Assembly: GCA_003235715.1 (NCBI GenBank)
Contig: QJVM01000051.1
Location: 1 to 44,047 of the forward strand
Origin: Nitrospirota bacterium
GTDB lineage: Bacteria; Nitrospirota; Thermodesulfovibrionia; SZUA-242
DNA length: 44,047 bases
Reading direction: 5' to 3'
Both the position numbers and the translations under genes were made by a program. Each line of letters opens with the position of its first letter. Position 1 is the stretch's first letter. Below the pieces are notes generated by a model. That model ran no database searches and was not told the DNA's origin. It was given only the letters and a program-made list of their open reading frames with translations. Shown here in pieces: positions 2,967 to 38,137 of this stretch.

Positions 2967-4451
2967 CTACATCTTCTTGATCATGAGGATTCGGTCCGTA
3001 ATGCCGTAGGGGTCCTCGACCTCCACGCCCGCCTGTGCCATCAACTGCTTCTTGCCCCTGTTGTTCAAATACTTATCAAGCTCCAGGTCGACCACCATGG
3101 GGACCTCCACACCTGCCTGGGTGAGCGCCTGTCGGAGAAGGGCCTCGGCCTTGCCGGCGAACCCCACCGCATCGCCCAGGATCCGTGCCGCCTCCGTAGG
3201 ATTATGGAAGCCGACTGAGTTCTCCGCGCCCACATAAAGGGACCGGAAGAACGCTTCCATGTAGAAATCCTTCGCTTTCTCATAGAATTCGGGGTCAATG
3301 TTCTTTCCCGCGGCCTGGGCCGCGTGGGTCTGCTCCAGCAGTTTCGCCACCGTGGCGGTCGCATACCCGGCTCGCAGCATCAGGGAAACGGTCCGGTCCT
3401 GAATCGCGAATACCTGTTCCCGCAGCCACTCGACACTCTCCGTGTGGCACTGCATGCAGGCCTTCAGGTCCTCCTTCAGAGGGCTCGTTACCCGATGGTT
3501 CGACGCCTTGACCGCACCCACCTTGGTATAGGACATATGGCAATCCGCACAGGCCGCTCCGGCCTTCCAGTGGACGCTGTTCATCGAGAAGAGTTCGAAC
3601 TCCGGATGACGCATAAACGGCATCTTGAATCCCGTCACCTTCTGCGTCCATTCCCCTACACTCTTATCCTCCCGGATTTGTTTGATGATGTTCTCCACCG
3701 GGATGTTTCCCCAGGAACTGCCCTGCCACGGGAAGTAAATGCCCACCGATTTCTTGTTTTCGTCCTTCTTGATGTTATAGGTCACATGGCACTGGCCACA
3801 CACCACACTCCGCATCTCCTGATGCGTCAGCTTGTTCGGATCCACGCCGATGGCTTCCAGCGCCTTCACCAGCGTGAAGCCCCTGGAGATCTTCAGGGAC
3901 ATATCCTTGTTGTCATGACAATCCACGCACGCCACCCCCAGTTCCTGATGCTTCTCCGGAATCATCAGGCGGACCTCGTTCCAGGGTTTGCTGTAGTAAT
4001 CAATCCCGTGCTCGGCTTCCAGCTTTGGGGCATAGGGCGTCTTGCATGTCAGGCACACCCCGCCGGCGCCAACCCGTGAGGGATCGATCTCGATCTGGTC
4101 CTTCAGCATATACAGATGCCCCCGGGGCTCGTTGTATTCCACCCCGAAGCCCCAGCCGTTGAAAAGCAGGGCCATGAACGGAAATTCAGACAATTTGTCA
4201 TACGTAATATTGTCAGCGTCGAACCCCTTCTTGTAACGGCTCTTGCCCGCCGGCGTGGCCTCCCCCGTCTTCTTCCAGAGTTCATATTCCGTGGGATAGG
4301 CTTTCCCCCATTCCGCCGGGTCCATCTCCCCGTCGGGGATAGTGACCGCCTTGACCTGCTGGGGTTTGGGCTGCTGACAGGCAGGCATCAACATGAACGG
4401 GACGACCACAACCATCAACAGAGCCACCATCAGAAAGACATTCCTCTTCAT
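2967..4451 (-). CDS. nrfA: Ammonia-forming pentaheme cytochrome c nitrite reductase, catalytic subunit
   Basis: 494 aa; catalytic CXXCK heme motif (CLTCK) plus CVDCH, CGQCH, CADCH, CMQCH; NrfA context such as MPFMRHPEFELFSMNSVHWKAGAACADCHMSY. Immediately downstream of nrfH. Confidence 0.96.
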   Translation of the reverse strand: MKRNVFLMVALLMVVVVPFMLMPACQQPKPQQVKAVTIPDGEMDPAEWGKAYPTEYELWKKTGEATPAGKSRYKKGFDADNITYDKLSEFPFMALLFNGWGFGVEYNEPRGHLYMLKDQIEIDPSRVGAGGVCLTCKTPYAPKLEAEHGIDYYSKPWNEVRLMIPEKHQELGVACVDCHDNKDMSLKISRGFTLVKALEAIGVDPNKLTHQEMRSVVCGQCHVTYNIKKDENKKSVGIYFPWQGSSWGNIPVENIIKQIREDKSVGEWTQKVTGFKMPFMRHPEFELFSMNSVHWKAGAACADCHMSYTKVGAVKASNHRVTSPLKEDLKACMQCHTESVEWLREQVFAIQDRTVSLMLRAGYATATVAKLLEQTHAAQAAGKNIDPEFYEKAKDFYMEAFFRSLYVGAENSVGFHNPTEAARILGDAVGFAGKAEALLRQALTQAGVEVPMVVDLELDKYLNNRGKKQLMAQAGVEVEDPYGITDRILMIKKM

Positions 4452-15157: not shown

Positions 15158-16498
15158 TCAGGTAACCGGAAAGACGAAGTAGAAATTGTTCCCGCCGGGG
15201 GTCGCTTCATATCCGACCACCCCCTCGTGCAGTTCAACCACATTTCTCACGAAGGCCAGACCATGTCCCGCCCCCGGTCGGCCGCTTGCGTTCGGTCCGC
15301 GAAATCCGTCCTCGAAGAGGCGCTCCCGGGCATCCGGAGTGAGATGCGGCCCGGTACTGAAGACATTGTATTTGATGCCGTCACGGCCTTCCCCAAAGAA
15401 ACCGGGAAGGAGCTGTCTGCCGTAGGAAACCCGCCTTCTGGATTCACCGGCCTGCCCCTCGGGCACCTCGGTGTACTTGATGGCGTTGGAAAACAGGTTG
15501 GCGTAGACCTGGGCCATGAGCCCCACATCCACCACCAGGATCGTCTCTTCTTCAGGCACGTGGCTCAGGCGATCATCCACGACAATGCCGGCCGCCACAA
15601 ACTTGTCCATATAGCGCTCGAGTTGAGGCTCGATCACATCCCTCTTCATGTTACAGCTCTTCTTCCGGGCCGTGAGTCGACCCTCGTCAAAATGGCTTCG
15701 CCGGAATAGGGTTTCGAGGAAAAGGCTGGTGTTCTTGTAATGGCCGTTGATGTTCCGGAATTCCTGCCATAGCCCCCGGTTCACATCGACCAGCTCGGCC
15801 AGCAACGTTCGAAGCTCCGGGTCGGTCTCGGTTCGTGCCTCGACATACTCCGAAAAGAGCCGTTCCACTTCTCTGTTCTTGTCCACCAGACCCTGCAGGT
15901 TTCGGAGATAGAGTTTATAGACCATATTGGGTACGATGACATTATGTTCAATGTCCGCGACGAGACCGCTGATGAATTTCAGGTGTTCGACGTGCCGTGC
16001 GGAGAGAAAACGGTTGTGCATGGAATAGCCGATGCGGTTCGCATATTTCTGGAAGAACAGTTGTCCGTCGCGGGTAAGGGGGGCAGGGGGCAGCATTTCC
16101 AGCATGCCCAGCAGGTTATCACTGGCGTCAAAGGGAAGCTCGTTCAGCCGCATGACCTTGCCTCGCACCGGGAACACGTACCCCCCGGTTTCTTCCACGA
16201 TATAAAACTCCTCAGAACTCCGGATGTAGGCCGGGGCCGGGACATAAAGTTCTTCGGCCAGGCTGCAGGCCACCAACACAGGGGTTCCCTCGCGGGCCAG
16301 ACCCGGCGCAAAGAGCCGGGCATCCATATCCAGAAAAACCTTGGGGACGCTTACACAGAGGGCGTAGAATTCTTCGAAACTTTCAAATTCCTGGGCAAGA
16401 TCGAAAAAGGCCTTGAACGCGTTGTTCTGCTTTTCACTGAAGCTGTAATTCTGATAATCCGCCTTCTTTTCGAGCAGCCGTCTCGTGACTGATTCCAT
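15158..16498 (-). CDS. Sensor histidine kinase (putative N-terminal sensory region plus HATPase_c)
   Basis: 446 aa; possible H-box VADIEHNVIVPNM, N-box VYANLFSNAIKYTE, G2-like GAGHGLAFVRNVVELHEG. No receiver domain in the ORF. Confidence 0.82.
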   Translation of the reverse strand: MESVTRRLLEKKADYQNYSFSEKQNNAFKAFFDLAQEFESFEEFYALCVSVPKVFLDMDARLFAPGLAREGTPVLVACSLAEELYVPAPAYIRSSEEFYIVEETGGYVFPVRGKVMRLNELPFDASDNLLGMLEMLPPAPLTRDGQLFFQKYANRIGYSMHNRFLSARHVEHLKFISGLVADIEHNVIVPNMVYKLYLRNLQGLVDKNREVERLFSEYVEARTETDPELRTLLAELVDVNRGLWQEFRNINGHYKNTSLFLETLFRRSHFDEGRLTARKKSCNMKRDVIEPQLERYMDKFVAAGIVVDDRLSHVPEEETILVVDVGLMAQVYANLFSNAIKYTEVPEGQAGESRRRVSYGRQLLPGFFGEGRDGIKYNVFSTGPHLTPDARERLFEDGFRGPNASGRPGAGHGLAFVRNVVELHEGVVGYEATPGGNNFYFVFPVT

Positions 16499-29875: not shown

Positions 29876-30918
29876 GCGCGCTCCTTTCTCTGGGCCCGGA
29901 GCAGGATGTACTTGGCCAGAGCCAGTACAACCAGGCTGAAGACAAAGAGAATGAGGGCCAGGTGAAAAAGAGCCGAAAGATAAGTGTCTGAGTCGGCCTC
30001 GGTGAATTCATTGGCCAGGGTCACGGTTATACTGGCGGCACCGTCAAAGAGGGACGACGTGATCTGGTGGTTGTTGCCGAGAACGAAGGCCACGGCCATT
30101 GTTTCGCCCAGGGCCCTGCCCAGCGACAACACAATACCCCCGAAAACTCCAAGTCTGGCGTGGGGAAGGATCACGTCCCGGATCACCTCCCACTTGGTGG
30201 CCCCCAACCCGTAGGCCGACTCCTTGACAAGAGCGGGGGTCAGGTTGAAGGCGTCCCGGGAGATGCTGGCCGCGAAAGGCACGATCATGATGCTCAGGAT
30301 CACGCTGGCCGTAAACAGGTCGATACCCATAGGGGTTCCGGCAAACAGCTGTCCGATGACCGGGATGTCGCCAAAGACGCTCTGAAGAGCGGGCTCCACA
30401 TGGTCGGCCATGATCGGGGCCAGAGTGAAGAGCCCCCACATCCCGAAGACGATGCTGGGGATCGCCGCGAGCAGTTCAATGGCTACCCCGATAGGGCCCT
30501 TCAGGAAGTTGGGAGAGACCTCGGAAAGAAAGATGGCAATCCCGAGGGCCACCGGGATGGCGAACACGAGGGCCAGCACCGTGGTTACGGCCGTGCCGAA
30601 GAGACCTGTGGCCGCACCAAAAAGTTCCTCTACCGGGTTCCACTCGGTCGAGAAGATAAAACCTATGGGGCCAAACTTCTCGATTGAAAGAACGGATTCG
30701 GACAGAAGGACCCCCAGAATCCCGAGAACGATGACGATGATGAAGACCCCGGCTGCGCCGGTGAGCGTCGCGAACAGAACATCGACCGGGGATCGCCGCC
30801 TGAAGAAAGCCGCAAGCCCTCGGGGTTCTGCCCGTGACAAAACAGGACCGGGCAAGGCCGTGGCCTCGCCCGTTCCCGGATCGTCCCTGTCAGGTTTTAT
30901 ATACCCGCCTTCTTCCAA
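29872..30918 (-). CDS. pstC: Phosphate ABC transporter permease PstC
   Basis: 348 aa; ELLAAIPSIVFGMWGLFTLAP, GATKWEVIRDVILPHARLGVFGGIVLSLGRALGETMAVAFVLGN. Confidence 0.95.
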   Translation of the reverse strand: MEEGGYIKPDRDDPGTGEATALPGPVLSRAEPRGLAAFFRRRSPVDVLFATLTGAAGVFIIVIVLGILGVLLSESVLSIEKFGPIGFIFSTEWNPVEELFGAATGLFGTAVTTVLALVFAIPVALGIAIFLSEVSPNFLKGPIGVAIELLAAIPSIVFGMWGLFTLAPIMADHVEPALQSVFGDIPVIGQLFAGTPMGIDLFTASVILSIMIVPFAASISRDAFNLTPALVKESAYGLGATKWEVIRDVILPHARLGVFGGIVLSLGRALGETMAVAFVLGNNHQITSSLFDGAASITVTLANEFTEADSDTYLSALFHLALILFVFSLVVLALAKYILLRAQRKERA

Positions 30919-31913
30919 TACTCCCTCACCTTGTTCTTCAGGCTCTCCGGAAGAGGCACGTACACCAACCGCTCGGCCGTGGCGTCTCCGCTCTTGAAAG
31001 CCCAGTCAAAGAACCGGGTCGTTTTCAGATTCGATTCGGACTTCTCGCGGGCCAGGAGAATAAACGTTGCCCCGGCAATCGGCCAGGCCTTGGCTCCGGG
31101 CGCATTGGTCAGCCAGAGATGAAAATGTCTGGCCGGGTCGAAATCCGCGGAGGTCGCGGCTTCCTTGAAGGATTCCATGTCCGGCTCCACAAAGGTCCCG
31201 GCCGCGTTCTTGAGCTGGATATGTGCCAGTTTATTTTGCTTCGCATAGGCAAATTCCACATATCCAATGGCATTGCGGGTCCGCTTCACGTAGTTGGCCA
31301 CCCCCTCGTTTCCCTTTCCCCCGATTCCCGCGGGCCACTTCACCGCCTTGCCGGCCCCCACCGTGTCTTTCCAGGCGGAGCACGCCTCGCTCAAATACGT
31401 GGTGAAGATGGCGGTCGTGCCAGACCCGTCCGACCGGTAGACCACCGTGACAGATTCGTCCGGGAGCTTCAATCCTGGATTCAAAGCGGTCACCGCCGGG
31501 TCGTTCCACTTCTTTATCTCCCCGAGAAGGACTCGGCAGAGAGTCTCCGAATCCAGCCTGAGGTCTCCCGCCTTCACTCCCTTGATGTTGACCACAGGAA
31601 CGACCCCGCCGATCACGGCCGGAAACTGGAGCAGCTTTTCCTTCTCCGCATCCTCAGGAGACAGAGGGGCATCGGAGGCGCCGAAATCAACGGTGCGTGC
31701 CGTGATCTGGCGCTGACCCCCGCCGGAGCCAATGGACTGGTAGTTCACCTGAACTCCGGTGATCCCGTTGTACTCGTAGGCCCAGGCCGAATACACAGGA
31801 AAGGGGAATGAAGCTCCGGCGCCGTTCAGCCTTTCAGCCGCCTGAACGCCGGTAACCGCGACCAGCAGAACGAGCACGACAAGGATGGTGCTTTGAACAA
31901 AAGGGTTCTTCAT
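30897..31913 (-). CDS. pstS: Phosphate ABC transporter substrate-binding protein PstS
   Basis: 338 aa with signal peptide; NGAGASFPFPVYSAWAYEYN, NYQSIGSGGGQRQITARTVDFGASDAPL, VYRSDGSGTTAIFTTYLS. Confidence 0.97.
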   Translation of the reverse strand: MKNPFVQSTILVVLVLLVAVTGVQAAERLNGAGASFPFPVYSAWAYEYNGITGVQVNYQSIGSGGGQRQITARTVDFGASDAPLSPEDAEKEKLLQFPAVIGGVVPVVNIKGVKAGDLRLDSETLCRVLLGEIKKWNDPAVTALNPGLKLPDESVTVVYRSDGSGTTAIFTTYLSEACSAWKDTVGAGKAVKWPAGIGGKGNEGVANYVKRTRNAIGYVEFAYAKQNKLAHIQLKNAAGTFVEPDMESFKEAATSADFDPARHFHLWLTNAPGAKAWPIAGATFILLAREKSESNLKTTRFFDWAFKSGDATAERLVYVPLPESLKNKVREYWKKAGI

Positions 31914-32246: not shown

Positions 32247-33998
32247 CTATGCAAGCGGATCCGTAAGGATACGGACCGTAGTCCCTTTTCCAGGACGGCT
32301 TTCCACGTTCATCTGCCATCCATGGGCACGCACGAGGTGCTTCACAATGGCTAGTCCCAGACCCGTGCCGCCTTCAGCCCTCGACCGGGCCGGGTCCACG
32401 CGGTAGAACCGCTCGCCGATACGGGGAAGATGTTCTTCCGGGATGCCCACTCCGGTGTCTCGAACAAACAGGGATACCCCGCTGTCCACGGCTTCCGCGC
32501 CGGCGGTAACCTCGCCGTGGGTCGTGTACTTCAGGGCATTGTCGACAAGGTTTGTGAGGATCTGCACCAGACAGCGCTCGTCCGCCCGGACTGCAGGCAC
32601 GCTTGGAGAGAGGATCACCTTAAGAGAAACCCCCTTGTCCCGCGCCTTCCGTTCGAAGTTCCCCACCACGCTCTGGAAGACCCCCTCAAGGGCGACGTCC
32701 TTCTTCTGTATCTGAACCGTTCCGGATTCGAGACTGGAAATGGTCAGCAGGTCATCCACAAGACTGTTGATCCGGTCACTGTTGGAACGGATGATTCCAA
32801 GAAAGCGCAGGGCCGTCTCCCGGTCTTGGAACCCTTCCTCGAGGAGGGTGTCGGCAAATCCCCGGATGGACGTGATCGGGGTCTTGATCTCGTGGGACAC
32901 GTTGGCTACAAAATCCCGTCGCATTCTTTCTAGCTGCTTGAGTCGGGTGATGTCACTGAACAGGAGCACGCAGGCCGGTTCACCGGCCGTCACCACCTCG
33001 AAGAAGGGCGCCACCTTCACGATGACATGCCGTTCACGCCCCTCGAGCAAGAGGGTAAGCTCCTTTTCCTCCGGAAGCCGGGTCTTCTTGGCCCGGTCGA
33101 GCAGAGCCAGGAATTCCGGGTTCCGGACGACTTCCGTGACCGGCCGGTTCACCAACGACTGGTCAAAGAAGTCCGAGGCCGCAGCGCTGTACAGCACGAT
33201 GGTATCCGAAGCATTGATGATCAGCAGGGCATCGGGGATGTTCTTCAGGATCGTGCCCAGGCGTTCGTTTTCAAGCTCGTTGGAGGAAATAAGTTCCCGC
33301 AGTTCCTCGGCCATTGTGTTCAGGTTCGTGGCGATCTGACCAAACTCGCCCACCCCCTCGAGGATCAGGCGGCTTTTCAGTTCCCCCCGGGCCAGGGACG
33401 TGGAGAAATCCGTCACCTGTCCCACCATGCGTCGAAGCCTGACCGCTTGCCACAGGGAAAAACCGCCCGTCACGAAAAGAAGCACGATAAGGGCACCCAG
33501 AACCCGGTGGCGAAGCTCCTGAATGGAATCGTTGACCGCCTTGAGCGGAACAGCCAGCCGTATGAACCCTGAGGGTTTCTCAGCGGTGCCCGTCCTGAGG
33601 GCGAAATAGAGGAAGTCGTAGCCCAGGGTCGTGCTGAACCGAACCGAAGACCCGGTGTTCTGCAGTATGGATTGCTGGATCTCGGGCCGCCTCAGATGGT
33701 TCTCCATCTCTGCGGCGGCTCCGTCCGAATCTCCAAGGACCACGCCGTCCCAGCTTACGATCGTGACCCTTGACCCGATACGGGCTTTGATTTTCCGGCA
33801 GGAGTCATCCAGGTTCCCCCCCCTGCCGGGGTCCAGCTGCTCCGCGATGAGGATCGCCTGCTTCTTCAGGCTTTCGGTGAGATTCTCGATGCGCGTCTGG
33901 CGCACGACCTGGGTGATGTATATCTCGGAAAACAGGAGGGACACCCCAACCAGCAAGGCAAATACGACCAGGACCGGCCCGAAATATCCCCTTCTCAC
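32247..33998 (-). CDS. phoR: Phosphate regulon sensor histidine kinase PhoR
   Basis: 583 aa; HAMP-like and PAS regions, H-box FVANVSHEIKTPITSIRGFADTL, N-box LVDNALKYT, VRDTGVGIPEEHLPRIGERFYRVDPARSRAEGGTGLGLAIVKHLV. Confidence 0.93.
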   Translation of the reverse strand: MRRGYFGPVLVVFALLVGVSLLFSEIYITQVVRQTRIENLTESLKKQAILIAEQLDPGRGGNLDDSCRKIKARIGSRVTIVSWDGVVLGDSDGAAAEMENHLRRPEIQQSILQNTGSSVRFSTTLGYDFLYFALRTGTAEKPSGFIRLAVPLKAVNDSIQELRHRVLGALIVLLFVTGGFSLWQAVRLRRMVGQVTDFSTSLARGELKSRLILEGVGEFGQIATNLNTMAEELRELISSNELENERLGTILKNIPDALLIINASDTIVLYSAAASDFFDQSLVNRPVTEVVRNPEFLALLDRAKKTRLPEEKELTLLLEGRERHVIVKVAPFFEVVTAGEPACVLLFSDITRLKQLERMRRDFVANVSHEIKTPITSIRGFADTLLEEGFQDRETALRFLGIIRSNSDRINSLVDDLLTISSLESGTVQIQKKDVALEGVFQSVVGNFERKARDKGVSLKVILSPSVPAVRADERCLVQILTNLVDNALKYTTHGEVTAGAEAVDSGVSLFVRDTGVGIPEEHLPRIGERFYRVDPARSRAEGGTGLGLAIVKHLVRAHGWQMNVESRPGKGTTVRILTDPLA

Positions 33999-34696
33999 AG
34001 GTCCGCCTCCACGTAGTACCCGATGCCGCGCCGGGTCTTGATGTACATCGGCGAGGAAGGGTCGTCTTCGATTCGGGACCTGAGACGACGGATGTGGACA
34101 TCCACGGTCCGGGGTTCCACAAAAGCCTCGTCCTTCCAGACCGCGTCCAGCAGCTGGTCCCGGCTGAAGATACGGCCCTTTTTCTGAACCAGATAGTGAA
34201 GCAGGCGGAATTCGGTCGCGCTGAGGTCCACCTTCTGTCCGTTCTTCGTGACCGTGTAGGCCTCCGGATCGATGATCAGGCCCTCGAACTGAATCCGTCC
34301 GGTGGCTTCTTCGGAAGCCGACATTCTTCGCAGCACGGCCTTGATCCGGGCTAAAAGCTCCCGCGGGCTGAAAGGCTTCGTGATATAGTCGTCGGCCCCG
34401 AGTTCCAGTCCGAGAACGCGGTCCACTTCTTCGCTCCGGGCCGTAAGCATGATAATCGGGGTCAATTTCGTGGCGGGATTTCCCCGAACCATCCGACAGA
34501 TTTCCATCCCCGGAAGCCCCGGAAGCATCAGATCCAGAAGGATCAGATCAAAGGATTCCTGACGGATCCGGGACAAGGCCTCTGCTCCGTCACGGACCAC
34601 CGTCGCCTGATAGCCCTCTTTCGAAAGGGTATGGAGCACCAGGTCGGCAATATCCCTTTCATCTTCGACAATGATTATCCGTCTCAACGTGGGCAT
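33995..34696 (-). CDS. phoB: Phosphate regulon response regulator PhoB (OmpR family)
   Basis: Receiver IIIVEDERDIADLV...DLILLDLMLPGLPGMEICR plus winged-helix LSATEFRLLHYLVQKKGRIFSRDQLLDAVWKDEAFVEPRTVDVHIRRLRSRIE; start reassigned to the ATG at 34696. Confidence 0.93.
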   Translation of the reverse strand: MPTLRRIIIVEDERDIADLVLHTLSKEGYQATVVRDGAEALSRIRQESFDLILLDLMLPGLPGMEICRMVRGNPATKLTPIIMLTARSEEVDRVLGLELGADDYITKPFSPRELLARIKAVLRRMSASEEATGRIQFEGLIIDPEAYTVTKNGQKVDLSATEFRLLHYLVQKKGRIFSRDQLLDAVWKDEAFVEPRTVDVHIRRLRSRIEDDPSSPMYIKTRRGIGYYVEADL

Positions 34697-34858
34697 GAAA
34701 TTCACGGGTGCCTTTCGGTCCCGGAGAGCCCCAGAACGCCGGGGCCTCGTCTTCATTTCAAAAACAGGGTATCCTAAGAACCAGGTCTGCGATAAACCGT
34801 GGAACACCCTGTCCATGGTACTACATTACCTGTCATTTTTCTGCGCAAAGGAGGCATT

Positions 34859-35176: not shown

Positions 35177-35239
35177 GCCCTTAGCCGAGGCTCCTCTCGC
35201 GCCTCCGGCGTATTCTGACTTTTACCCTTTTGTGTCCGG

Positions 35240-35287
35240 CCGGGCGCAGGATTCCCTGACAGGGTTCTGCGCCCGGTTGCGTTTTTT
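35240..35287 (+). terminator. Intrinsic terminator downstream of the cytochrome c gene
   Basis: CCGGGCGCAG / CTGCGCCCGG 10-bp stem (inner CCCTGACAGGG hairpin) followed by TTGCGTTTTTT. Confidence 0.85.
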
Positions 35288-35362: not shown

Positions 35363-38137
35363 ATGAAATCTCGACGCATCGGAGAATACCTGGCCGAACG
35401 AATCCACGGTGGCCGTGCGGTCGTCGAAGAAGCGCTGTGTAGCCAGGTCGCTTTGGCCACTGACGGGACAGGGGTGCCTCTTGGACAGCTCCTTATTGAA
35501 TCCGGTCATGCCGACCGTGCCGCCGTCAACGATTGCCTCACCCTTCAGCGACAGGATATTCTGGCCTCGGTCCAGCTGTTCCGAACGTTGAGCCAGGAAT
35601 GGGTCCGCCGGATTGCCGAAGTCAGCAGACAGATCTCCCTTCCCGCAGAGACCGTGGTCTTTCGGCAGCATGGCCCGGGAGATGGCTTTTACGTTCTTGT
35701 CACGGGTTCCGTCCGCGTCTACCGGGAATCGGAACATGGCCCTGAGACCACGCTGAGTGTTCTCGGTCCGGGCAAGACCTTCGGCGAGATTGCGCTCCTG
35801 ACCGGCGAACCGCGTTCGGCCTCCGTCATCACCGTGGAAGCCTCCCAGCTTCTCGTCGTGCCCCGGAAAAACTTTGAAGAACTGCTCTCGGCCGTCCCCG
35901 AACTTTCAAAAACCTTTGTTCGCATCCTGGCGGAATGGCTTTCACACGGAGATCGAACCATCGAAGCCGCCTCAGCCACCGAGCGGGATTATCAACAGTT
36001 CGTCTCAGCACACCTGCGGCCCATTCCGTCGCGGCTGAGCGGAAAAAGCCGGGAGTTCACAGGACTTCTCGCCAGGATACGCCAGCTTGCGGAAGGTGAC
36101 CGGCCGGTTTTGGTCACGGGCGAACCTGGCACCGAGAAACTGGAAGCAGCCAGTCTCATTCACCGCTTCAGCACACGACGGGGCAAGCCGTTTCTGTGGA
36201 TCGATGCCAGAAGTATCGTCCTGGACGGCATGGAGCAGGGCCCGACTCTTCAGGACCGGGTCCGACAGGAACTGGCCCAGTGCAGCGCCCTTTTCGGCCG
36301 GTCCAGGGAGGCGCTGCCCTTTGCCCCGGCTAGCCGGCTGGGCCTGCTCCGTGTGGGGGACGGAGGGACCGTGGTCATCCACAACACCGAAGACCTGGCC
36401 CCCGGGGTCCAGAAACATCTGGGCCGCTATCTGGCCACAGGAACCTATCATCCCTTGGGCGCGGAAGAGCCCGAATCTTCTTCGGTTCGCATCGTGATGA
36501 CCTCGTCCCTCGGGCCGGACCTGTATGCGGAAGCCGAAAGTATTCATCCCACGCTGAAGACGTTCCCGGAGTCCGACGTACTCTGGATCCCGCCCCTTCG
36601 ATCCCGGAAAAAGGACATTCGCCACCTGGTCGGAACCATGCTTCAAAGTCTGGGTCGCGAGTTCGGCAAGAAGGTAGAGGGACTCAGTGAGGAGGCCTAT
36701 CAGGCCATCATGGCCTATGACTGGCCCGGCAACACCGATGAGCTGGAGGTCGTGATCCGTCGTGGTGTCAGTATTGCGGAGCACGACCATCTTTGGCCTC
36801 AGGATATCTTTCTTGCCCAGCCACCGGTCACGAGTCGATACACCTTCAACCTCCTAAAGCTGGAACCGGTCCGGAAGTTCTTCCTGCAGGGAACCTTTGC
36901 AGCGCGGGCGCAGATCGTAACCGGCCTCTTCATTGTGGCCGTGGTGGCGTCAGGATTCCTCGGTTCTGAAAATCCGTCCCGGAATGTGGCTCCCGTGCTC
37001 ACGTGGGGCGTCTGGGAACCTCTGCTTGTTCTCAGTTGTTTTGGCTTGGCCAGGATGTGGTGTTCCGTCTGTCCCCTCAGGGGCCTGAGCCGGACCCTTC
37101 AGAAGCTGGGAACTCTTGAGAAGAACGTTCCCGGCATCGTTCGAAGGTACGGATATCTGGTCGCCGCAGGGGGCATCGGACTCATCTTCTGGGCGGAGTC
37201 TGCTTTTCATATGCTTCAGTCGCCTGTGGCCACGGCGGTCCTTATCACCGTGATCCTGATATATGCGTTGTCTGTGGCCTCGCTTTACAAAAGGATGGCC
37301 TGGTGCCGTTATCTCTGCCCCCTGGGGGCGATGGTCGGCTTAATTTCCAGATGCTCAGCCATTGAACTCCGGTCCAATTACAACATCTGCTGCAGCGACT
37401 GCGCCCAGCCCGTGTGTTTCACGGGAAATGCGTCAGGCGAAGGGTGTCCCATGTTCGAAGGTCCCTTCAGCGTTCGAGACAACCAGGATTGCACTCTCTG
37501 CGGAAACTGCATTCGGGTCTGCGAACGGAATTCTCCTGTTCTCAATCTCCGCATCCCCGGCCAGGAACTCTGGGCTATCCGTAAGCCCGACCGAAGAGTG
37601 GTCGCCTTGGGACTCGTACTTATAGGAAGCCAGGTCTTTCGCGCGTTGGAGGACAGTGGCGCTTTCAGCTCTCTGGTTACATCAGAATTCTGGAAACCCG
37701 CTTCAGCCCTTTTGGTGATTTTGTACACGCTACTCATGGCACTGCTGGCCGGGCTGTGGGGTTCCAGGCTTTTCAAGAATCCCGGAACGGGCCATACCGA
37801 AGCCATGGGGTTTATGGTCTACGGCCTGATTCCCCTTGCCGCCACCTTTGAACTCGCCTGGCATCTAGCACGTTTTCTGTCTTTGGGTGGAACTTTGGGA
37901 CGCGTTACCTCGGAGCAGTTGGACCTGCGGTTTGTTCTCCCCTCGTATCAAGCCTCGGAGACTTTCATAGGTTTCTCAAGCGTGCTGATTCTTCTTTGCG
38001 GCATGGTTTGGTCCCGGGTGGTGCTAACCCGCCTGTGGGGGGCCCACGGAACTTCCGCCCAAAGGCGGGAACTTCCGCCCTGGGGAAAGTGGCCCGGACT
38101 CGTTCTCGGTATCCTGCTGATCTGGCTGATCTATTGA
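35363..38137 (+). CDS. Multidomain fusion: N-terminal region, cyclic-nucleotide-binding domain, degenerate sigma54-type AAA+ domain, NapH/NosR-like membrane domain with 4Fe-4S motifs
   Basis: 924 aa; cNMP GPGDGFYVLVTGSVRVY...FGEIALLTGEPRSASVITVEASQLLVV; AAA-like PVLVTGEPGTEKLEAA...LFGRSREALPFAP...GGTVVIHNTEDLAPGVQKHLGRYL...LWIPPLRSRKKDIRHLV...YDWPGNTDELEVVI; TM plus WCRYLCPLGAMVGLIS and CTLCGNCIRVC. Confidence 0.85.
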   Translation: MKSRRIGEYLAERIHGGRAVVEEALCSQVALATDGTGVPLGQLLIESGHADRAAVNDCLTLQRQDILASVQLFRTLSQEWVRRIAEVSRQISLPAETVVFRQHGPGDGFYVLVTGSVRVYRESEHGPETTLSVLGPGKTFGEIALLTGEPRSASVITVEASQLLVVPRKNFEELLSAVPELSKTFVRILAEWLSHGDRTIEAASATERDYQQFVSAHLRPIPSRLSGKSREFTGLLARIRQLAEGDRPVLVTGEPGTEKLEAASLIHRFSTRRGKPFLWIDARSIVLDGMEQGPTLQDRVRQELAQCSALFGRSREALPFAPASRLGLLRVGDGGTVVIHNTEDLAPGVQKHLGRYLATGTYHPLGAEEPESSSVRIVMTSSLGPDLYAEAESIHPTLKTFPESDVLWIPPLRSRKKDIRHLVGTMLQSLGREFGKKVEGLSEEAYQAIMAYDWPGNTDELEVVIRRGVSIAEHDHLWPQDIFLAQPPVTSRYTFNLLKLEPVRKFFLQGTFAARAQIVTGLFIVAVVASGFLGSENPSRNVAPVLTWGVWEPLLVLSCFGLARMWCSVCPLRGLSRTLQKLGTLEKNVPGIVRRYGYLVAAGGIGLIFWAESAFHMLQSPVATAVLITVILIYALSVASLYKRMAWCRYLCPLGAMVGLISRCSAIELRSNYNICCSDCAQPVCFTGNASGEGCPMFEGPFSVRDNQDCTLCGNCIRVCERNSPVLNLRIPGQELWAIRKPDRRVVALGLVLIGSQVFRALEDSGAFSSLVTSEFWKPASALLVILYTLLMALLAGLWGSRLFKNPGTGHTEAMGFMVYGLIPLAATFELAWHLARFLSLGGTLGRVTSEQLDLRFVLPSYQASETFIGFSSVLILLCGMVWSRVVLTRLWGAHGTSAQRRELPPWGKWPGLVLGILLIWLIY

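What the first reader, a model, noticed from the sequence alone, without database searches (positions are those of the whole stretch)
35363..38137. 924-aa fusion of cNMP-binding domain, degenerate sigma54-type AAA+ and a membrane 4Fe-4S domain
Seen directly: an N-terminal region, a cNMP-binding domain with a good phosphate-binding cassette (GEIALLTGEPRSASV), then a region collinear with sigma54 activator AAA+ domains, then a multi-TM domain with WCRYLCPLGA and CTLCGNCIRVC, as in NapH/NosR-type polyferredoxins. The AAA+ part looks decayed for sigma54 work. Walker A is GEPGTEKL instead of GxTGTGKE, the GAFTGA loop position reads REALPFA, Walker B reads VVIHNTE instead of LFLDE, and no C-terminal HTH is present. 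Yet the fold-level motifs PPLRSRKKDI and YDWPGNTDELEVVI remain. Inference: the AAA+ domain may have been reused as a nucleotide-sensing or scaffold module that couples a ligand signal to membrane electron transfer, rather than activating transcription.
Basis: partly seen in the sequence, partly recalled or inferred. Interest (0 to 1): 0.78.

Follow-up and report, generated by a model that had tools for sequence, protein, structure and literature searches.

The report
Membrane iron-sulfur protein with dead AAA+
A bacterial membrane iron-sulfur protein carries, fused in one chain, two domains related to second-messenger sensors and a broken copy of a gene-activating motor; dozens of relatives in unrelated bacteria keep the iron-sulfur part perfectly and the motor broken, so the motor has probably been reused as a scaffold rather than lost by accident.

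Summary
The ORF at 35363-38137 (+) is real, unbroken and matches the description. Pfam finds cNMP_binding, Sigma54_activat, AAA_lid_14 and Fer4_5 in one 924-aa chain.

It is not a local decay. I collected about 33 proteins of the same architecture from Desulfobacterota, Scalindua, cyanobacteria and other lineages, including isolates. None has GAFTGA, the Walker B Asp-Glu pair, either arginine finger or an HTH. The 12 Fe-S-type cysteines are invariant in 27 of 28 aligned proteins; the exception is truncated. The degenerate P-loop (GEPGxE) is itself a conserved signature in the window's clade and in a cyanobacterial subgroup. Five cyanobacterial genomes encoding the protein have no sigma-54. On a tree, all the degenerate AAA+ domains lie on one side of a branch (support 100/99) from canonical activators.

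Best reading: a sigma-54-independent membrane redox protein in which a catalytically dead AAA+ module links cytoplasmic ligand-binding domains to a NapH/NosR-like polyferredoxin. Anatomy is well supported; ligand, electron partners and coupling are inferred. Some cyanobacterial members lie beside cysteine synthase and sulfide genes. No paper describing the architecture turned up.

The parts
35363..38137 (+). 924-aa ORF: MshEN-like + cNMP-binding + pseudo-AAA+ + membrane Fe-S module
   Evidence: full-length relatives
35363..35560 (+). residues 1-66: MshEN-like helical domain; motif I (R5 I6 G7 L10 V21 L25 Q28) and motif II (P39 L40 G41 L44 G48 V55 L59 Q62) keep the published 24-residue spacing, Arg of motif II replaced by Pro, spacer 10 instead of 5
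   Evidence: profile of 6 relatives vs PDB: PilF E=2.7e-9, PilB 1.1e-6, MshE 0.0067; motif definition from PMC5013675; no single-sequence Pfam hit
35561..35947 (+). residues 67-195: cyclic-nucleotide-binding (CRP-like) domain with intact phosphate-binding cassette FGEIALLTGEPRSASV
   Evidence: PF00027, 88.6 bits; cassette kept in most of the window clade, lost in cyanobacteria and Scalindua
35897..36013 (+). residues 179-217: long connecting helix, CRP dimerisation-helix position
   Evidence: AlphaFold2 model
36029..36562 (+). residues 223-400: degenerate sigma54-type AAA+ core
   Evidence: PF00158 64 bits; Foldseek to 1ny6/6luf/1ojl, target TM about 0.9
36119..36142 (+). degenerate Walker A GEPGTEKL (residues 253-260)
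   Evidence: alignment with own-genome canonical activators; GEPGxE recurs in L163, L165, L166 and cyanobacterial type B
36308..36325 (+). GAFTGA-loop position reads EALPFA (residues 316-321)
36371..36385 (+). Walker B position reads VVIHN (residues 337-341), no Asp-Glu
36563..36832 (+). residues 401-490: AAA+ lid (PPLRSRKKDI, YDWPGNTDELEVVI); arginine fingers and sensor II Arg absent
   Evidence: PF25601 56 bits
36845..37642 (+). residues 495-760: NapH/NosR-like membrane Fe-S module
   Evidence: PF12801; TIGR02163 NapH/MauN 48 bits at 624-724, below cut-off
37061..37072 (+). CxxCP motif C567-C570 at the end of a predicted TM helix
37304..37318 (+). CxxxCP motif C648-C652 (WCRYLCPLG)
37388..37522 (+). 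8-Cys ferredoxin-like region C676, C680, C685, C695, C710, C713, C716, C720
   Evidence: invariant in 27 of 28 aligned members
37643..38134 (+). residues 761-924: C-terminal TM helices
34799..35176 (+). small monohaem cytochrome c upstream (CAACH); separated by a strong terminator-like hairpin, so probably a separate transcript
35237..35279 (+). intrinsic terminator-like hairpin (18 pairs, T run) between the cytochrome gene and this ORF

Best explanation
Shown by sequence: this is one member of a widespread family of membrane iron-sulfur-type proteins built as [optional sensor domains]-[CRP-like domain]-[sigma54-type AAA+ domain without its catalytic and sigma-54-contacting residues]-[NapH/NosR-like polyferredoxin with 12 conserved cysteines]. 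Inferred: the Fe-S clusters sit on the cytoplasmic face and exchange electrons between the quinone pool and a partner. The cytoplasmic MshEN-like and CRP-like domains bind small signals (candidates c-di-GMP and a cyclic mononucleotide). The dead AAA+ domain acts as an oligomeric hinge or platform that passes the ligand state to the Fe-S module, switching electron flow or redox signalling. It does not activate sigma-54 transcription.
For: Family-wide loss of GAFTGA, Walker B Asp-Glu and both arginine fingers, with 12 invariant cysteines in 27/28. No RpoN in five cyanobacterial genomes that encode the protein. Pseudo-AAA+ domains fall on one side of one branch against canonical activators, 100/99 support, all 200 bootstraps. 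AAA+ fold retained in the model. Intact phosphate-binding cassette in the window. MshEN-like N-terminus. Predicted TM layout and positive loops suggest that the cysteines are on the cytoplasmic side. The same Fe-S module is fused elsewhere to a DOMON-like domain or to an unidentified N-terminal region, so it is a module that takes different input domains.
Against: No biochemical data. The cNMP cassette is lost in the cyanobacterial and Scalindua branches, so a cyclic nucleotide is not the general ligand. The motif II Arg of MshEN is Pro and the spacer is longer. No partner is fixed by gene order in the window: the cytochrome gene upstream is cut off by a terminator-like hairpin. No solved structure resembles the Fe-S module. 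AAA+ oligomerisation is assumed, not predicted.
Confidence: 0.45

Rival explanations
1. Membrane redox sensor rather than electron carrier: the polyferredoxin reads the redox or sulfide state and the cytoplasmic part relays it to a regulator, as NosR and NirI influence nos and nir expression.
For: NosR/NirI carry CXXXCP motifs and are reported to regulate gene expression (PMC8139620). Cyanobacterial type A genes lie beside cysteine synthase, rhodanese, SQR-like and ArsR-type genes. A Synechocystis gene of the same annotation label (slr1529) changes metabolism when deleted (PMC5318462; homology not tested).
Against: No DNA-binding domain and no conserved regulator neighbour in the window clade. 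The CRP-like domain normally binds a ligand, suggesting input rather than output.
Confidence: 0.25
2. Membrane-anchored anti-activator: the dead AAA+ subunit joins rings of true sigma-54 activators and poisons or recruits them to the membrane.
For: The window genome has RpoN and about 22 strong sigma-54 activator hits; the AAA+ fold is close to them.
Against: Five cyanobacterial genomes carrying family members have no RpoN and no strong canonical activator hit. The arginine fingers and GAFTGA that contact neighbours and sigma-54 are lost.
Confidence: 0.1
3. Pure electron-transfer protein whose cytoplasmic domains are remnants without function.
For: The Fe-S module (48% to close relatives) is more conserved than the AAA+ core (34%); stand-alone versions of the module exist.
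Against: AAA+ core and lid persist over large distances with conserved fold residues, the GEPGxE signature is conserved in two separate groups, and the lid is as conserved as the Fe-S module (46% vs 48%).
Confidence: 0.12
4. ATP-binding switch: the AAA+ domain binds but does not hydrolyse nucleotide and so reports energy charge.
For: Walker A GTGKT or GSGKT is intact in cyanobacterial type A and close to intact in several deltaproteobacterial members.
Against: The window and its closest relatives have GE.G[TA]E with the Lys mostly lost and no Walker B Asp-Glu.
Confidence: 0.08

Closest known systems
Bacterial enhancer-binding proteins (NtrC, PspF, NorR, NtrC1)
   Same: AAA+ core and lid of the same fold and sequence family; sensor domains placed N-terminally
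   Different: No GAFTGA, no Walker B Asp-Glu, no arginine fingers, no HTH; membrane Fe-S module in the HTH position; present in genomes without RpoN
NapH/MauN ferredoxin-type proteins (TIGR02163) and NosR/NirI polyferredoxins
   Same: Membrane module with CxxCP and CxxxCP motifs and a ferredoxin-like cysteine region
   Different: NapH model matches at 48 bits against a cut-off of 213; no FMN-binding domain of NosR found; cytoplasmic CRP-like and AAA+ domains instead
MshEN domain proteins (MshE, PilB, PilF)
   Same: N-terminal 66 residues match by profile with the two-motif spacing
   Different: Not joined to a secretion ATPase; motif II Arg replaced by Pro; longer spacer
Degenerate enhancer-binding proteins such as VpsR or TyrR (recalled, not tested)
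   Same: sigma54-type AAA+ that no longer works with sigma-54
   Different: Those keep an HTH and bind DNA; here the output domain is a membrane Fe-S module

Membership tests
sigma-54 activator (bEBP) | AAA+ core and lid of the family | tested here: met
   PF00158 64 bits, PF25601 56 bits; fold match
sigma-54 activator (bEBP) | GAFTGA sigma-54 contact loop | tested here: not met
   absent in the window and all aligned relatives
sigma-54 activator (bEBP) | Walker B Asp-Glu and arginine fingers | tested here: not met
   no member has Asp-Glu; FREDLYYRL arginines lost in all
sigma-54 activator (bEBP) | C-terminal HTH | tested here: not met
   lid is followed by TM helices; no HTH in Pfam scan
sigma-54 activator (bEBP) | sigma-54 in the genome | tested here: inconclusive
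   present in G000, G053, Desulfosediminicola, Scalindua; absent in five cyanobacterial genomes with the protein
NapH/NosR-type polyferredoxin | membrane Fer4_5 with conserved Cys motifs | tested here: met
   PF12801 above cut-off; 12 Cys conserved
NapH/NosR-type polyferredoxin | NCBIfam NapH score above cut-off | tested here: not met
   48 bits, cut-off 213
NapH/NosR-type polyferredoxin | bound [4Fe-4S] clusters and electron transfer | not testable with these tools
   needs spectroscopy
cNMP-binding domain protein | fold and phosphate-binding cassette with Glu and Arg | tested here: met
   88.6 bits; FGEIALLTGEPRSASV
cNMP-binding domain protein | ligand binding | not testable with these tools
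   needs binding assay
MshEN c-di-GMP receptor | sequence similarity to MshEN | tested here: met
   family profile vs PDB E=2.7e-9; single-sequence Pfam negative
MshEN c-di-GMP receptor | both RLG...LxxxLxxQ motifs with 5-residue spacer | tested here: inconclusive
   spacing inside each motif kept, motif II Arg to Pro, spacer 10 residues

The most novel reading that the evidence does not exclude
A new class of second-messenger-gated membrane redox proteins, spread over several bacterial phyla, in which a catalytically dead sigma54-type AAA+ domain was recruited once as a structural coupler between cytoplasmic ligand sensors and a polyferredoxin. The cyanobacterial members labelled as nitrogen regulators would then be membrane redox proteins, not transcription factors.
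Probability: 0.35. Interest if true: 0.78.

Novelty: new variant of a known kind. Interest (0 to 1): 0.62.

Why it matters
If true, an AAA+ motor family known for transcription activation has been turned into a membrane redox coupler, conserved from Desulfobacterota to cyanobacteria. It would give bacteria a direct protein link between cytoplasmic signals and membrane electron flow. It would also correct the transcription-regulator labels carried by some cyanobacterial members, in organisms that have no sigma-54 at all. The family includes members in cultured strains (Leptolyngbya PCC 6406, Nodosilinea, Desulfosediminicola), so the idea can be tested.

Tried and rejected
Frameshift join or assembly artefact: rejected; same architecture in isolate genomes. 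Local decay of a regulator: rejected; the loss is family-wide. Operon with the upstream cytochrome c: weakened by a strong terminator-like hairpin between them. sigma-54-type promoter upstream: pattern scan found none, only a chance-level GG-N10-GC. Solved relatives of the Fe-S module: none by sequence or fold. Literature searches for the architecture: no relevant hit. Pfam for the N-terminal 66 residues one sequence at a time: no hit; only the family profile revealed MshEN. The MshEN loci fetched from the window genome were not used further. Tree of the Fe-S module alone puts the tripartite proteins in two groups, so a single origin of the full fusion is not shown, only of the AAA+ part, and long branches plus shared deletions could inflate that.

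Full report
OBSERVATION. The ORF at 35363-38137 (+) is a single 924-aa frame. Pfam places cNMP_binding at 92-176, Sigma54_activat at 226-382, AAA_lid_14 at 413-482 and Fer4_5 at 625-663, all above curated cut-offs. One detail: in GEPGTEKL the Walker A lysine is kept and the residue lost is the glycine before it, replaced by Glu.

ANATOMY. AlphaFold2 with 19 homologues (mean pLDDT 79, pTM 0.51, so relative domain placement is not reliable) gives four parts: an N-terminal helical domain, a CRP-like beta-roll followed by a 39-residue helix, an AAA+ core with lid, and a multi-TM module. Foldseek matches the AAA+ part to NtrC1, FlrC, ZraR and PspF with target TM-scores near 0.9. The N-terminal 66 residues give no Pfam hit alone, but a profile of six relatives finds only MshEN-containing proteins in the PDB, down to E=2.7e-9. 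The two 24-residue motifs defined in PMC5013675 can be laid on the window sequence with exact internal spacing (Arg5, Ile6, Gly7, Leu10, Val21, Leu25, Gln28; Leu40, Gly41, Leu44, Gly48, Val55, Leu59, Gln62). The Arg of the second motif is Pro39 and the spacer is 10 rather than 5 residues, so c-di-GMP binding is possible, not shown. The C-terminal module was modelled alone at pLDDT 85 and has no structural relative in the PDB. Hydropathy and loop charge suggest that the cysteine-rich region lies on the cytoplasmic side; this is inference.

FAMILY. A search of 61 related genomes found one full-length relative at 41% identity. A genome-collection scan added 20 more from Desulfohalobiaceae, Desulfosediminicola (complete genome), deltaproteobacterial and Pseudomonadota MAGs, Scalindua and many cyanobacteria. 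A survey of 396 genomes of the window's phylum gave seven tripartite members (window included) and many other fusions of the same Fe-S module, including one with a DOMON-like domain. Two more cyanobacterial members lie on plasmids. Five more paralogues came from genomes already holding a member. Six full-length members were scanned with Pfam, the window included, and all show the three domains; the only score under a curated cut-off is Fer4_5 in L055 (21.2 against 22 bits). Scalindua members have an extra GAF domain.

THE AAA+ DOMAIN IS DEAD ACROSS THE FAMILY. Aligned with canonical activators of the same genome, all members lack GAFTGA, the Walker B Asp-Glu pair and both arginine fingers. The Walker B Asp alone survives in a few members, never the Glu. 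Sensor II Arg remains only in some cyanobacterial type B proteins and not in the window. Walker A varies: intact G[TS]GKT in cyanobacterial type A, GE.G[TA]E with Lys mostly lost in the window clade (P0004, L053, L163-L166), and GEPGLEKDN conserved in cyanobacterial type B. The recurrence of GEPGxE argues for a conserved state, not random decay. By contrast the 12 cysteines of the Fe-S module are invariant in 27 of 28 proteins; the exception, L069, is truncated in that region. Five cyanobacterial genomes encoding the protein have no sigma-54 DNA-binding domain hit, whereas the window genome, G053, Desulfosediminicola and Scalindua do. A tree of the AAA+ and lid region puts all 32 pseudo-AAA+ domains on one side of a branch from 14 canonical ones (100/99, all 200 bootstraps). 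Long branches and shared deletions call for caution. The Fe-S module tree needs two changes for the tripartite label, so domain swaps or losses may have happened.

LIGAND SIDE. The phosphate-binding cassette is intact in the window and in most of the deltaproteobacterial members and lost in Scalindua and cyanobacteria. A cyclic nucleotide is therefore a candidate ligand for the window clade and its deltaproteobacterial neighbours only.

CONTEXT. In the window the gene stands between a cytochrome c gene, separated by a strong terminator-like hairpin, and unrelated genes. In two genomes of one genus (G239, G053) it follows a cysM-like gene, a Prok-JAB gene and a small unidentified gene on the same strand. 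In seven of the thirteen cyanobacterial type A loci examined a cysteine synthase gene is the next or next-but-one gene downstream, and rhodanese, SQR-like, Rieske, DsrE-like and ArsR-type genes recur nearby. Type B loci show no such context. A C-terminal-module query matched 41 of 146 sampled cyanobacterial genomes, mostly in open frames of 826-907 aa; I infer, but did not check in each, that these carry the AAA+ part.

LITERATURE. Four searches for the architecture found nothing relevant; the library holds open-licence papers only. The plasmid member in Aulosira is annotated nitrogen assimilation regulatory protein, the same label as Synechocystis slr1529, called ntrX or nrtX in papers, whose deletion was among the mutants with the largest metabolite changes at 72 h (PMC5318462). 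That slr1529 belongs to this family is a lead, not a test.

VERDICT. The reuse hypothesis is strengthened from one degenerate protein to a family. Nucleotide sensing by this AAA+ domain is unlikely; scaffold or coupler is likelier. The step from ligand to electron flow is inference.

Noticed in passing
window 2967-4451 (-): Cytochrome c552-type (NrfA-like) ammonia-forming nitrite reductase candidate, 494 aa, PF02335 at 505 bits.
   Followed up: no
window 15158-16498, 30897-31913, 32247-34816 (-): A histidine kinase-like protein, a PBP-type solute-binding protein, and a PhoR/PhoB-like kinase and response-regulator pair next to it.
   Followed up: no
L169 5037-7787, L170, L171, L172, L173: About 930-aa fusions of a DOMON-like domain with the same Fe-S membrane module, in the window's class.
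   Followed up: partly
L012 889-3009: About 700-aa proteins with a signal-peptide-like N-terminus and the same Fe-S module, common in the class.
   Followed up: no
L050, L051, L062, L063, L070, L077, L078: Cyanobacterial sulfide-type gene islands with cysteine synthase just downstream of the type A protein, two of them on plasmids.
   Followed up: partly
L164 4116-8979 and L168: cysM-like, Prok-JAB, small unidentified protein and the tripartite gene in one same-strand run, reminiscent of JAB-linked cysteine synthesis.
   Followed up: partly
L077 6419-9126: Type A gene of Nostoc parmelioides split in two overlapping frames: frameshift or sequencing error.
   Followed up: no
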